Below are positions 1 through 9,660 of a stretch of DNA of 64,000 bases, piece by piece. The stretch comes from Myxococcales bacterium. Its GTDB lineage: Bacteria > Myxococcota > Myxococcia > Myxococcales > Myxococcaceae. Within the stretch, counting starts at the first letter, position 1, and each line of letters begins with the position of its first letter. The stretch is taken from positions 1-64,000 of the forward strand of contig JADLDB010000086.1 of assembly GCA_020846875.1 (NCBI GenBank), given 5' to 3'. The translations under genes were made by a program, and so were the position numbers. Below the pieces are notes generated by a model, which saw only the letters and a list, made by a program, of their open reading frames with translations, made no database searches and was not told where the DNA came from.

Positions 1-168
1 CTAGCAGGGTGCTGAGGAAGGCCGGACCGAGCCCGACCGAGGAGCCGCGAGCCGCGCAAGGAAGAGGCCCGCAGGAATACTTGTCGGTATTTCAAGGGCC
101 TCTGACGATGCCCGGCGACGCGGATCGTCGGTCTGGCGACGGGAGTGCCTTTCTCAGCACCCTGCTAG
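1..168. repeat. CTAG-bounded full-length hairpin element (MITE-like), copy 1
   Basis: The first 22 bases pair with bases 147-168 in inverse orientation at 21 of 22 positions (outer arm begins ctagcagggtgctgag). Pairing continues inward: the gaccga/ccgcg stretches near 35-50 find partners near 118-135, and agaggccc (near 63-70) pairs with gggcctct (near 97-104), closing on a short ttgtcg-like loop. The whole 168 bases therefore fold as one imperfect hairpin with arms of about 80 bases. Both ends are CTAG, a palindrome that could be a 4-bp target duplication; IS5- and IS701-type elements are known to use YTAR/CTAG-like targets. No ORF inside is credible. The right end is one base from the stop codon of the kinase gene, so it may also act as its terminator. 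The element may be a non-autonomous transposon; its left boundary coincides with the window edge. Confidence 0.6.
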
Positions 169-169
169 C

Positions 170-1246
170 TCAACCCACTGGCACGCCGAGGCTCACCAGC
201 CACCGGGTGACGAAGGGCCACCACAGCTCGCGCGTGGCCACCACCGTGCCCAGCACCACCCCGAGGAAGATGCCCAGCCCCCAGCGCGGCCCCCGCACCG
301 TGGCCAGCTCCGCCGGCGACAGCTGGGACAGCTGCGTCAACTGCGTCCTCGACAGCCGCGCCATCGCCTCGGACTCGGTGAGGCGGTTGCGCTTGCGCAG
401 GAAGTTCACCAGCACCGCCGACGGCGAGGAGTCCAGCCCGGACAACAGGCTCTCGAAGGCGCGGCGCAGCTGCGTCGCGTCCAGGTAGCGCTCCTCCAGC
501 TTCACCGCCATCGCCTTCTCGATGACCTCGCGCAGCGCCCTGGGGGCCTTCGGCGCGGCCTTCTTCAGGGAGTCGCGCTTGCCCGTCGTCACCCTGGCGA
601 AGACCTCGCCCGGGTTGCTGCCGGTGTAGGGCCGCTTGCCCGACAAGGCCTCGTACAGCACCACCCCCAGGGAGTAGATGTCGCTGCGCGCATCCACCGG
701 CGCGCCCGTCACCTGCTCGGGGGACATGTAGGCCGGCGTGCCCACCGCCATGCCCGTCTTGGTGAGGCGGTCCAGCTCTTCCGTCTGGACGATGCCGAAG
801 TCCATCAGCTTGGCGTCGCCCCAGGTGGACAGCATGACGTTGCCCGGCTTGAGGTCCCGGTGCACCACCCGGTGGAAGTGGGCGTGCTCCAGCGCGCTGG
901 CCAGTTGCAGGCCCAGCACCGCCACCGCCTCGGGAGGCAGCGGCGCTTCCTTGATGAGGTCGGCCAGGGTGGGCCCGTCCACCAGCTCCATCACCATGTA
1001 CCAGCCGTCGTTCTTCTCGATGAGATCGTACAGGGTGACGATGTGCTGGTGCCGGAAGCCGGCCAGGGCCATCGCCTCGCGCTTGAAGCGGGACAGGGCC
1101 TCGGCGGACTTGGAGCCTTCCGGCGGCAGCTCCTTGACGGCCACCTCCCGCTGCAGCGACTCGTGAATGGCCCGGTACACCGTGGCCATGCCGCCCTTGC
1201 CCAGGGCTCCGAGGATGCGGCAGTCACCCACCTTGCGAATCGCCAT
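170..1246 (-). CDS. Membrane-anchored Ser/Thr protein kinase
   Basis: A Hanks-type Ser/Thr kinase of 358 residues. The Gly-rich loop GKGGMATVY is at 16-24, the ATP-binding Lys at 38 (VAVK), the catalytic HRDLKPGN at 129-136, DFG at 149-151, and the activation segment ends in GTPAYMSPEQ. The kinase domain fills about 1-265. A hydrophobic segment near 322-342 predicts a single C-terminal membrane helix with a very short tail beyond it, so there is no sensor domain outside the membrane. All catalytic residues are present. It lies 9 bases after a long coiled-coil gene and 58 more bases after an AAA+ ATPase, probably one operon. The ATG at 1246 is used; the stop is directly beside the hairpin element at 1-168. 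Confidence 0.9.
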   Translation of the reverse strand: MAIRKVGDCRILGALGKGGMATVYRAIHESLQREVAVKELPPEGSKSAEALSRFKREAMALAGFRHQHIVTLYDLIEKNDGWYMVMELVDGPTLADLIKEAPLPPEAVAVLGLQLASALEHAHFHRVVHRDLKPGNVMLSTWGDAKLMDFGIVQTEELDRLTKTGMAVGTPAYMSPEQVTGAPVDARSDIYSLGVVLYEALSGKRPYTGSNPGEVFARVTTGKRDSLKKAAPKAPRALREVIEKAMAVKLEERYLDATQLRRAFESLLSGLDSSPSAVLVNFLRKRNRLTESEAMARLSRTQLTQLSQLSPAELATVRGPRWGLGIFLGVVLGTVVATRELWWPFVTRWLVSLGVPVG

Positions 1247-6958: not shown

Positions 6959-7123
6959 CTAGAGCGCCGAACAGGTTGGCTCCCGTCGTGACATCGGCGA
7001 TTTGCGTCGCATCCCGTCGTTGCTCCTCGGTCAGTTGCCCACCAGCAGCTTCCCTCGTCGCGCCTTGGTCTGCTCGCAACTCACCGACGTCACTCGGTCC
7101 GCCAACCTGATCGGCGCTGCTAG
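6959..7123. repeat. CTAG-bounded hairpin element (MITE-like), copy 2
   Basis: Bases 6959-6980 and 7101-7123 are inverted repeats (agcgccga-A/T-caggttggc, one mismatch plus one indel after CTAG). A second, inner pair (gtgacatcggcgatttgcg against a 16/19 partner near 7074-7092) extends the hairpin. Length (165 bases), CTAG ends and the shared first bases CTAGCAG match the element at 1-168, although the rest of the sequence differs. Its right CTAG supplies the TAG stop codon of the MMPL gene. It fills most of the 239-base gap between the PilZ gene and the exporter gene. Probably a non-autonomous mobile element of the same family; a double-sided terminator is the alternative. Confidence 0.55.
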
Positions 7124-9660
7124 CCGGACACGTCACCGGAGCGACGCGTGCCGACCAGCTGCGCTGAGGCCGCTGCCGCGCCCAGGCCCACCGCCAGCGC
7201 GAGGCCGATGCGCGAAACCGGCGCGAGGCCCACCAACAGCAGCGCAAGGCCGGCCGCCCCTACCGCCACGAGGAAGGCCGCTCGCCGGCGCGTGGAGCCG
7301 GGGGCCCCGCCCGCCACCAGCGTGACGACGGGAGGAACGAGGAACAGCGCCGCGGAGCCCGAGTCCACGCCGAAGCCGAAGGTCCCGGTCGTGCCGAGCG
7401 TCACCGCCGCGGCCATCGCAGCCGCCAGCACCGTGAGTGCCGTGTCGAGGAGCCGCCGCGTCAACACCAGCAGCGCCAGCGCTCCCACGCCGAGGAGCAA
7501 CCCCAGCGCCGTCCACAGCCCGCGCAGGAGATCGCCTTCGATCTGCGCGGCCACCACCGGCAGGCCCGTCACCGTCACCGTGGCGGCCTCGCCCGTGCCT
7601 GGGTGTGGATCGAGGAGATCGGTGATCACACCCGCGGCGCGGACAGTGAAGGCCTCGGGCGCTCCCGGAGCCAGCCGCTCCACCAACTGCGCGGCCCGCA
7701 CCGCCAGGCGTGAGTCGTGCTCGCGGGTGAGGATGGTCTCGGTGAGCTCCTTCGCGTGCTCGCCCACGTCGGGGAAGGACGCCGCGACTGCTTCCACCTT
7801 CGCCGCGCGCTCAGCCGGGGCCACCGCGAGCGCGACCTCCAACTGCGCCCACTCCGCGTCCGTCGGGGAATAGGGAGAGTCCGGCGTCGCCAGCCAGGCC
7901 CGGACGCGGCGGTAGCTTTCCTGGCTCAGCGCCACCTGCGCTTCTTCCGGCAGCGGCGCGGTCGCCTCGGCCACCACTTCATCGACCCGCCCGGGCGCCA
8001 GCGCCACGGCGAAGACCGAGCTCAGCGCCAGCAACCGCTGCTTCGCAGCCGCCGCGCCCATCGACAGCGAGTCCTTCACCGCCGCCTCCACCACGCCCAC
8101 CAGCTCCGGCACCGGCTTCTCCGGCACGGTCGGCACCCGCAGCACCACCATCGCCTCGTCCCGCGCGTCGGAGGCGAGGTTCTTCACGTCCGGCCGGCCT
8201 TCGAGGAAGAACCACAGGTTCGCCAGCGAGTCGCGCGACGGGGGAATCCGGTGCACGCCGCCGAAGCCCTTGTTGAGGAAGCCGAGGATCTGCGACACCG
8301 AGCGCACGTCGGAGAAGGCGCGCGAGCCTTCGAGCAGATCGGTGAGCCGCATCAGCCGCGCCGCGACGTTCGGATCGCGGAGATCGCCCCTGAAGTCGAC
8401 CTGGATGAAGTCCGGCCCGCCGAAGCGGCGATCGAAGAAGGCCAGCGAGCGGCCGATCTCGTCGTCGGGGGTGAACATCGATTGGGGCGTGGCGCGGAAG
8501 TGTGCGCGCGTCGCGAGCCCGGCAGCGGCCAGAGCGACCACCAGCGCGCCGAGCACGAGCGCACGGGAAGGCGGGGCCTCCCCTCTCCCCTGCCCCTCGC
8601 CCTCCATGGGGGAGAGGGAAGCGCCGCTCAGCGGCACGAAGAGCAACACGCCAACGAGGAGCACGGCGATCGCGCCCAGTGACAGCCCCAGCCCGAAGTT
8701 GGACACGTAGGCGAAGGGCAACAGGCGCAACGGCGCCGCCGCGACGCCGACCGCGAGCACCGACGCCACCACCGGCCAGGGCAGCGGGTTCGGCGAGCCC
8801 TCCTCGAGCCCGCGCGCGTACGCCGCCACCGCCAGCACCAGCACGCCCAGCAACGCCGTCAGGGAGGTGAAGCTCAAGACGATCCCCAGCGCGCTCACCA
8901 GCCCCAGCCACACCACCAGGGACGCCGCCGCACAGCCGAGCACCACCGCGATGATCCGCACCCGCCGCACCATCACGCCCAGCACAATGAGGAGCAGCGC
9001 CACGAAGGCCGGCACCAGCCAGGGCAACTTCGCGTACACGCCGCGGGTGATGACGTCGGAGAAGAAGGCCGCGCCGAAGTACGCCGGCACGAGCGGGCCC
9101 TTGTGCTCCTCGACCGTGCGCTGCACCAGCGCCGCCAGCTCGGCCGGATCTTTCCGCGGATCCGCGCGCACCAGCACCATGTACCCGCGTTCGTCCCGAC
9201 TGATGAGCGCTCCCGACACCTGCGGGTTCGCCGCGATCTTCCTGCCCAGCGCCTCCAGGCTCGGCGCGTCGGCGGGCACGGAGGAGACCAGCAGCGACGT
9301 CTCCAGCGCGCCGTCCACCCCCTCCTGGATCGACTCGACGTTGGTGACGCTGGTCACCGACAGCACGCCGCCCGCCTTCTGCGCCGCCAGCGCGTCCGTC
9401 ACCTTCTTCACCGCCGCCAGCCCCTCAGCGGTTAGCGGCGCGCCGGGTTCCTCCAGGCCGATGATCAGCGAGTTGAACGCGTCGAACCGCCGCGACAGCT
9501 CGAGCCACTGCGTCACCGCCGGGCTCACCTTCGGCATGTGCTCGGTGACGTCCGAGCTGAAGGCGATCCGCGTGGACAGCGCCGCGCCGCCCAGGACGAG
9601 CAGCACGCCCGCGATCAGCGCCAACCCCCTGCGACGTTGGATGACCGCGACCAGGCTCAC
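7120..9660 (-). CDS. MMPL/RND-superfamily exporter
   Basis: An 846-residue integral membrane protein from a GTG at 9660. Layout is the RND/MMPL two-half plan: an N-terminal helix (ALIAGVLLVLGGAAL), a large periplasmic loop (about 35-210), a cluster of helices to about 390, a second loop (about 395-690), and a final helix cluster. It likely moves a lipid or hydrophobic substrate from the inner membrane toward the periplasm using the proton gradient. It is the last gene of a set with a lipoprotein, a DUF1302-like barrel and a LolA-like protein. A repeat-derived insert (SLSPMEGEGQGRGE) lies in a loop between helices near 347-362. The stop TAG comes from the CTAG end of the hairpin element, so the C-terminus may have been altered by insertion. 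Confidence 0.88.
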   Translation of the reverse strand: MSLVAVIQRRRGLALIAGVLLVLGGAALSTRIAFSSDVTEHMPKVSPAVTQWLELSRRFDAFNSLIIGLEEPGAPLTAEGLAAVKKVTDALAAQKAGGVLSVTSVTNVESIQEGVDGALETSLLVSSVPADAPSLEALGRKIAANPQVSGALISRDERGYMVLVRADPRKDPAELAALVQRTVEEHKGPLVPAYFGAAFFSDVITRGVYAKLPWLVPAFVALLLIVLGVMVRRVRIIAVVLGCAAASLVVWLGLVSALGIVLSFTSLTALLGVLVLAVAAYARGLEEGSPNPLPWPVVASVLAVGVAAAPLRLLPFAYVSNFGLGLSLGAIAVLLVGVLLFVPLSGASLSPMEGEGQGRGEAPPSRALVLGALVVALAAAGLATRAHFRATPQSMFTPDDEIGRSLAFFDRRFGGPDFIQVDFRGDLRDPNVAARLMRLTDLLEGSRAFSDVRSVSQILGFLNKGFGGVHRIPPSRDSLANLWFFLEGRPDVKNLASDARDEAMVVLRVPTVPEKPVPELVGVVEAAVKDSLSMGAAAAKQRLLALSSVFAVALAPGRVDEVVAEATAPLPEEAQVALSQESYRRVRAWLATPDSPYSPTDAEWAQLEVALAVAPAERAAKVEAVAASFPDVGEHAKELTETILTREHDSRLAVRAAQLVERLAPGAPEAFTVRAAGVITDLLDPHPGTGEAATVTVTGLPVVAAQIEGDLLRGLWTALGLLLGVGALALLVLTRRLLDTALTVLAAAMAAAVTLGTTGTFGFGVDSGSAALFLVPPVVTLVAGGAPGSTRRRAAFLVAVGAAGLALLLVGLAPVSRIGLALAVGLGAAAASAQLVGTRRSGDVSG
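8575..8620. repeat. REP-like palindromic repeat inserted in frame in the exporter gene
   Basis: ccctctcccc at 8581-8590 and ggggagaggg at 8609-8618 form a perfect 10-bp stem with an 18-base loop. On the coding strand it translates to SLSPMEGEGQGRGEA, a peptide typical of REP/BIME-like repeats read through in GC-rich bacteria and unlike the surrounding membrane helices. It keeps the reading frame and falls in an inter-helix loop. Confidence 0.6.

What the first reader, a model, noticed from the sequence alone, without database searches (positions are those of the whole stretch)
1..168. Whole-element hairpin with CTAG ends next to a kinase stop codon
The 168 bases fold as one imperfect hairpin (outer 21/22 match, inner stems agaggccc/gggcctct), with CTAG at both ends and no coding content. 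This is the form of a MITE made by an IS5/IS701-like transposase with a CTAG target. The end lies one base from the kinase stop, so insertion at gene ends, or a terminator role, is suggested. The sequence of the pair of ends is shown directly; the transposon view is inference.
Basis: partly seen in the sequence, partly recalled or inferred. Interest (0 to 1): 0.7.

Follow-up and report, generated by a model that had tools for sequence, protein, structure and literature searches.

The report
Mobile hairpin carrying a conserved RNA-like core
The 168 bases are one copy of a small transposon without genes of its own, spread through the bacterial phylum Myxococcota, whose middle is an unrecorded hairpin under strong selection for its shape that has been carried by the ends of several different transposons, often inserted exactly at the stop codons of genes.

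Summary
Bases 1-168 are a complete mobile hairpin with CTAG at both ends. The genome has 3 further copies of this type and some 25-30 of a second type (one at 6959-7123) with different arms but a homologous core. The transposon reading is supported. In relatives, autonomous IS of the IS5/IS1182 clade carry the same ~18-20-bp ends. In Anaeromyxobacter, CTCAG is duplicated in filled sites and single in empty ones. Targets (CTAG, CTCAG/CTGAG) often coincide with stop codons, which explains the gene-end position. A terminator role is not supported.

What is new is the ~125-nt core. It is not IS-derived, matches nothing in Rfam, and occurs in 33 of 195 genomes searched in the phylum. It sits on unrelated arms (cores 92-93% identical with arms at chance level; also the reverse). 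Of 29 stem pairs, 25 have compensatory double changes. G-U outnumbers A-C 181 to 23 in stems, while young copies mutate to both equally. Internal-loop mismatches covary too. Selection therefore acts on the fold of one strand, most likely as RNA. Its job is unknown; transcription was not tested.

The parts
1..168 (+). Element A: complete non-autonomous mobile hairpin, CTAG to CTAG
   Evidence: Boundaries from copies with different flanks; fold z -12.8
1..4 (.). left CTAG, presumed target duplication
   Evidence: Sequence. CTAG is at the ends of most copies; the duplication itself was shown by empty sites only for the CTCAG-type members in Anaeromyxobacter
165..168 (.). right CTAG, presumed target duplication
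   Evidence: As above
1..20 (+). left arm = terminal inverted repeat of an IS5-group IS
   Evidence: Matches the ends of autonomous IS L210/L211 over ~19-20 bp
149..168 (-). right arm = terminal inverted repeat
21..148 (+). conserved structured core; the + strand is the strand whose fold is under selection
   Evidence: CM R1, 131.5 bits; covariation; GU/AC asymmetry; non-canonical covariation
170..1246 (-). protein kinase gene (PF00069), stop codon 170-172 one base from the element
6959..7123 (-). Element B: second member of the family in this window, other arms, homologous core (6977-7103)
   Evidence: CM R1, 86.4 bits; arms
7120..9660 (-). MMPL-like gene whose TAG stop codon (7120-7122) lies in the CTAG at the end of element B

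Best explanation
Element A is a non-autonomous transposon with two separable modules. (1) Shown: the ~20-bp arms are the terminal inverted repeats of IS5/IS1182-clade DDE (DUF772) insertion sequences present in relatives. Inferred: their transposases move the element in trans. Shown for the Anaeromyxobacter members: insertion duplicates a short near-palindromic target. Because CTAG and CTGAG contain TAG and TGA, and CTAG is rare in this genome, insertions land at gene ends and the duplication leaves the stop codon intact. (2) Shown: the ~125-nt core is conserved apart from the arms, has been joined to different arms, and is kept by selection as a fold of one strand, with compensatory pairs, G-U but not A-C in stems, and covarying loop mismatches. 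Inferred: it acts as a folded RNA made when the element is transcribed. The most likely benefit is to the element itself, either a nuclease-resistant, non-terminating rod that makes insertions cheap to the host, or a binding platform for a host protein.
For: Copies and boundaries. IS with the same ends; Anaeromyxobacter IS with the same CTCAG flanks, 9 intact copies. Empty sites with a single CTCAG. Stop codons. Core/arm discordance; core inside a longer element with other ends. Fold under selection: 25 of 29 pairs with double changes, + strand more stable in 61 of 66, GU:AC 181:23 against 10:13 among young copies, G.A/A.C loop covariation.
Against: No transcription data. G000 has no detectable DUF772 transposase, so element A may now be immobile there. 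In Anaeromyxobacter the targeted gene transcribes the minus strand of the element, not the strand under selection. The core alignment was fitted to its model, and counts are not corrected for phylogeny. No empty site was tested for CTAG-type copies. The RNA step is inference (about 0.6 on its own, and any specific benefit about 0.3).
Confidence: 0.77

Rival explanations
1. The core is a single-stranded DNA or cruciform structure needed in transposition itself: IS1182-type transposases recognise palindromes, and the folded strand is a transposition substrate or a lure for their insertion.
For: IS1272, an IS1182-family element, replaces target stem-loops (PMC5678879). Four of 9 intact IS in G045 sit directly beside a MITE. 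All identified partner IS are of the DUF772 clade.
Against: Selection favours one strand (GU:AC 181:23, + strand more stable in 61 of 66), while a cruciform exposes both. The IS themselves move without the core. Adjacency is explained by the shared CTCAG target.
Confidence: 0.2
2. The core is passive: a long palindrome whose arms are homogenised by template switching during replication, so that apparent covariation arises without a function of the fold.
For: Long quasi-palindromes are corrected arm-to-arm by known mechanisms (own knowledge); the core has no ORF and no Rfam match.
Against: Homogenisation would remove the conserved G.A mismatches, which are kept in 74-79 of 82 sequences at two loops and covary as G.A/A.C; it predicts equal GU and AC, not 181:23.
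Confidence: 0.08
3. The hairpin is an ordinary transcription terminator of the kinase gene.
For: It is a strong hairpin one base after a stop codon.
Against: No U-run and no terminator-like site in 1-1300. It is a mobile repeat, and empty sites of relatives keep the gene end without it in Anaeromyxobacter. Orientation relative to genes is mixed in this genome.
Confidence: 0.04

Closest known systems
RUP of Streptococcus pneumoniae and other IS-mobilised bacterial MITEs
   Same: short, non-coding, multi-copy, inverted-repeat ends shared with an IS (RUP with IS630-Spn1; PMC2229807)
   Different: RUP is tied to one IS and no conserved core function was reported; here one core occurs with the ends of several IS types across a phylum and covaries as a fold
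ERIC / NEMIS (Correia) elements
   Same: imperfect palindromes of 105-155 bp in intergenic regions; orientation-dependent RNA effects (ERIC) or RNase III processing (NEMIS) reported (PMC2229807)
   Different: no sequence relation was seen or tested by alignment; other target and ends; in those no exchange of ends on one core is described in the review read
IS1182 family, including IS1272
   Same: the transposases of the type B partner (L215) and of the Anaeromyxobacter partner are IS1182; the family includes members that target palindromes (PMC5678879)
   Different: IS1272 leaves no TSD and replaces stem-loops; here a 5-bp CTCAG duplication is seen in Anaeromyxobacter
TnRErm46 (IS481 family) of Rhodococcus equi
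   Same: targets CTAG, so that TAG stop codons of target genes are preserved (PMC6794481)
   Different: a different transposase family; a large transposon with cargo genes; no hairpin core

Membership tests
Bacterial MITE | short, multi-copy, no transposase gene | tested here: met
   168 bp; 4 copies of type A and 46 arm ends of type B in the genome
Bacterial MITE | terminal inverted repeats shared with an autonomous IS | tested here: met
   L210, L211 (type A arms) and L215 (type B arms); the IS are in related genera, not found in G000
Bacterial MITE | target site duplication with empty sites in relatives | tested here: met
   Met for Anaeromyxobacter members (CTCAG); for the window copy only CTAG at both ends is seen, no empty site tested
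Bacterial MITE | mobilisation in trans by the IS transposase | not testable with these tools
   needs a transposition assay
IS5/IS1182-clade partner | DUF772 + DDE transposase between matching ends | tested here: met
   NF033581 for L210/L211, NF033551 for L215 and L180
   no IS701 match among the IS found, but only the DUF772 clade was searched for
Functional structured RNA | compensatory base changes beyond chance in the proposed helices | tested here: met
   not phylogeny-corrected
Functional structured RNA | transcription | not testable with these tools
   no RNA data held
Functional structured RNA | member of a described Rfam family | tested here: not met
   no match up to E = 5 in 5 loci and E = 1 in 7 loci
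Intrinsic terminator | G+C-rich hairpin followed by a U-run | tested here: not met

The most novel reading that the evidence does not exclude
The core is a mobile functional RNA: a phylum-wide RNA family with a defined three-dimensional fold (stacked tandem sheared mismatches) that spreads as cargo by acquiring the ends of one IS after another, like a bacterial counterpart of a SINE but moved by DNA transposases, and that gives the host or the transposon a selectable activity.
Probability: 0.4. Interest if true: 0.9.

Novelty: new variant of a known kind. Interest (0 to 1): 0.74.

Why it matters
Bacterial MITEs are usually regarded as deletion remnants of an IS whose interior does not matter. 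Here the interior is the conserved part and the ends are exchangeable, with statistical evidence of selection on a strand-specific fold. That makes the question 'do bacterial MITEs carry functional RNA?' directly testable in a culturable system: Anaeromyxobacter dehalogenans, where one complete genome has about 57 copies plus 9 intact partner IS and a sister genome has none detected. It also gives a clean case of a transposon that avoids harm by inserting into stop codons that its target duplication restores.

Tried and rejected
Rfam in two permissive searches: no family. Terminator: rejected. REP/RAYT-type element: not pursued, because the ends are TIRs of DDE IS and a TSD exists. The first genome contigs pattern had a spacing error and found nothing; corrected. 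Paraburkholderia MAG hit (L095): taken as chance, no CM match in that genome. A search of 12 other genomes with the Anaeromyxobacter transposase itself found nothing; a family search with DUF772 then found the partners. Strand asymmetry from biased mutation: disfavoured because young copies mutate to GU and AC equally (10 vs 13); an earlier version of that count for type B mixed orientations and was discarded. Replication-orientation bias in G045: none evident by eye from the listed coordinates.

Full report
What was checked. Window 1-168 folds as a single imperfect rod with energy -120.5 kcal/mol, against -67.5 +- 4.1 for shuffles. CTAG stands at 1-4 and 165-168, and the stop codon of a protein kinase gene (170-1246, minus strand) begins one base after the second CTAG. 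Position 1 of the window is also position 1 of contig C86 of a 7.06-Mb, 200-contig genome. The left boundary could therefore have been an assembly artefact. Two further contigs carry bases 1-127 exactly and then end (probably because the assembler broke in the repeat), and their sequence outside CTAG is unrelated (...GTCGAGC|CTAG and ...GGGGAAGT|CTAG). A degraded fourth copy is in C18. The element therefore does start at CTAG.

More copies, in two types. A covariance model of the core (R1, 129 positions) finds a second type in the same genome. It has a homologous core but other arms, CTAGAGCGCCGATCAGGTT...AACCTGTTCGGCGCTCTAG, ~165 bp, with 46 arm ends in the genome, i.e. some 25-30 copies, each with different flanks. 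One is in this window at 6959-7123 on the minus strand. Across relatives the model finds the family in 27 of 145 genomes of the order and 33 of 195 of the phylum, including other classes. A pattern scan of one genome per species returned 74 contigs, nearly all Myxococcota. MAGs labelled Elusimicrobia and Nitrospirae also have confirmed copies; mis-binning of these was not excluded.

The ends belong to insertion sequences. In related genomes, autonomous IS have the same termini. L210 (1295 bp) and L211 (1276 bp) begin CTAGCAGGGTGTTGAGAAAG or CTAGCAGGCTGTTGAGAAAG, against CTAGCAGGGTGCTGAGRAAG in the window. L215 (1727 bp) begins CTAGAGCGCCGATCAGGTTT, against the type B arm. Their transposases are IS5 group (NF033581, above cut-off) and IS1182 (NF033551, above cut-off), all with DUF772 and DDE domains. 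Identity stops at the arm/core junction, so the core is not the remains of the interior of these IS. G000 itself has no detectable DUF772 transposase.

Target duplication and empty sites. The complete genome G045 (5,029,329 bp; from memory the size of Anaeromyxobacter dehalogenans 2CP-1) has 123 arm matches, about 57 copies, flanked by CTCAG on both sides in a fixed orientation. An IS1182 element of 1497-1499 bp with related ends and the same CTCAG flanks is present in 9 intact copies, 4 of them touching a MITE across one shared CTCAG. In the sister genome G067 (5,013,479 bp, no copies reported) and in G070, orthologous sites have a single CTCAG (clean at L197, and also seen at L196, L184 and L187). 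In other sites the first base of the target differs. This establishes a 5-bp duplication for the Anaeromyxobacter members. For CTAG-type copies a 4-bp (or TA) duplication is inferred.

Why at gene ends. CTAG is rare here: 13 in the window, where 72 are expected from dinucleotide shuffles, and 4 of the 13 belong to the two elements. In G000, 15 of 47 arm flanks have their CTAG as the in-frame TAG stop of a gene, and 26 of 47 lie within 80 nt of a gene 3' end. The type B copy in the window sits on the TAG stop of the gene at 7120-9660. In G045, 25 of 40 copies have the right-hand CTCAG as the TGA stop (CTGAG) of the right-hand gene, and several of the rest are bounded by another element. Baselines are small: 9 of 28 CTGAG sites in about 48 kb of Anaeromyxobacter contigs that themselves carry copies, and 4 of 24 CTAG sites in the window. 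The duplication restores the stop. A CTAG-targeting IS481-family transposon with the same property is known in Rhodococcus equi (PMC6794481).

The core is under selection as a fold of one strand. On 95 core sequences (82 distinct), 93.6% of stem cells pair, 25 of 29 pairs show changes on both sides, and the covariation score is 0.528 against 0.162 +- 0.008 shuffled and at most 0.108 when slid (the alignment was fitted to the model, which favours the structure somewhat). The + strand folds better than its complement in 61 of 66 copies. Stem cells hold 181 G-U but 23 A-C. Among young copies within G045 and G000, independent stem mutations give G-U and A-C equally (10 vs 13), so the long-term excess is not explained by a mutational bias, though the young sample is small. 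Internal loops carry tandem G.A mismatches (e.g. 29-30/138-139 as GA/GA in 79 of 82), and some covary as non-canonical pairs: 58:108 G.A (45) or A.C (30); 62:104 A.G (27) or C.A (50); 49:118 G.A (74) or A.C (7) (permutations do not correct for phylogeny). On the complementary strand the G.A mismatches would be T.C. These signs point to an RNA fold.

Core and ends have separate histories. Cores of Anaeromyxobacter copies (L013, L100, L141) and of L046 are 92-93% identical while both arms are at chance level (32-41%); conversely L098/L103/L107 and L112 share arms at 94% with cores at 66%. In a Polyangiaceae MAG the core lies inside a longer (~280 bp) element with different ends. The core has therefore been taken over by different transposons.

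Mechanism. Shown: copies with exact boundaries, IS ends, target duplication in the Anaeromyxobacter members, and strand-specific selection on the core. Inferred: transposition in trans by IS5/IS1182-clade transposases, and action of the core as RNA. It is not an intrinsic terminator. The strand under selection is not the one transcribed by the targeted gene in Anaeromyxobacter, and orientation is mixed in G000, so the benefit is more likely to the element than to the particular neighbour gene. A stem-loop-based transposition role is the main rival, since the IS1182 member IS1272 replaces target stem-loops (PMC5678879). The one-strand bias speaks against a cruciform.

Novelty. MITEs mobilised by IS are well known (PMC2229807, PMC10969869). 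A conserved, covarying, IS-independent core shared across MITEs with different ends was not found in the literature searched nor in Rfam; the library holds only open-licence papers, and ISfinder was not available. It is filed as a new variant of a known kind, with an unexcluded stronger reading as a mobile RNA family.

Noticed in passing
window 1-127: Contig C86 starts exactly at the element; contigs C164 and C26 end in the same 127 bases, so the assembly probably broke in this repeat. Many type B copies likewise end contigs.
   Followed up: yes
window, whole: CTAG occurs 13 times against 72 expected from dinucleotide shuffles; 4 of the 13 belong to the two elements.
   Followed up: partly
L180 and L179 (G045:C1:3425600-3427900 and 116200-118400): MITE-CTCAG-IS-CTCAG-MITE arrangements; 4 of 9 intact IS copies touch a MITE through a shared target.
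   Followed up: partly
G045 versus G067: About 57 copies and 9 intact IS in one complete Anaeromyxobacter genome, none detected by the model in its sister genome: a recent burst or a loss.
   Followed up: partly
L093, L096, L102, L105, L115, L119, L126, L134, L145 (Polyangiaceae MAG WQYX): The core lies within a longer repeat (about 280 bp) with ends CCGCTTTC.ATTTGACG / CGTCAACTTGAAAGCGG; its transposase is not identified.
   Followed up: no
L104, L108, L091 (Elusimicrobia MAG GWA2_69_24); L086 (Nitrospirae MAG): Confirmed copies outside Myxococcota: transfer between phyla or mis-binned contigs.
   Followed up: no
L172 (G000:C166:2145-2310) and L067 (end of contig C74): The CTAG targets on both sides of one element are TAG stops of two convergent genes, so one palindromic CTAG may have served as stop codon for both.
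   Followed up: no
L005 1684-1810: A second, divergent member of the family (45 bits) lies directly next to the type A copy in G001.
   Followed up: no
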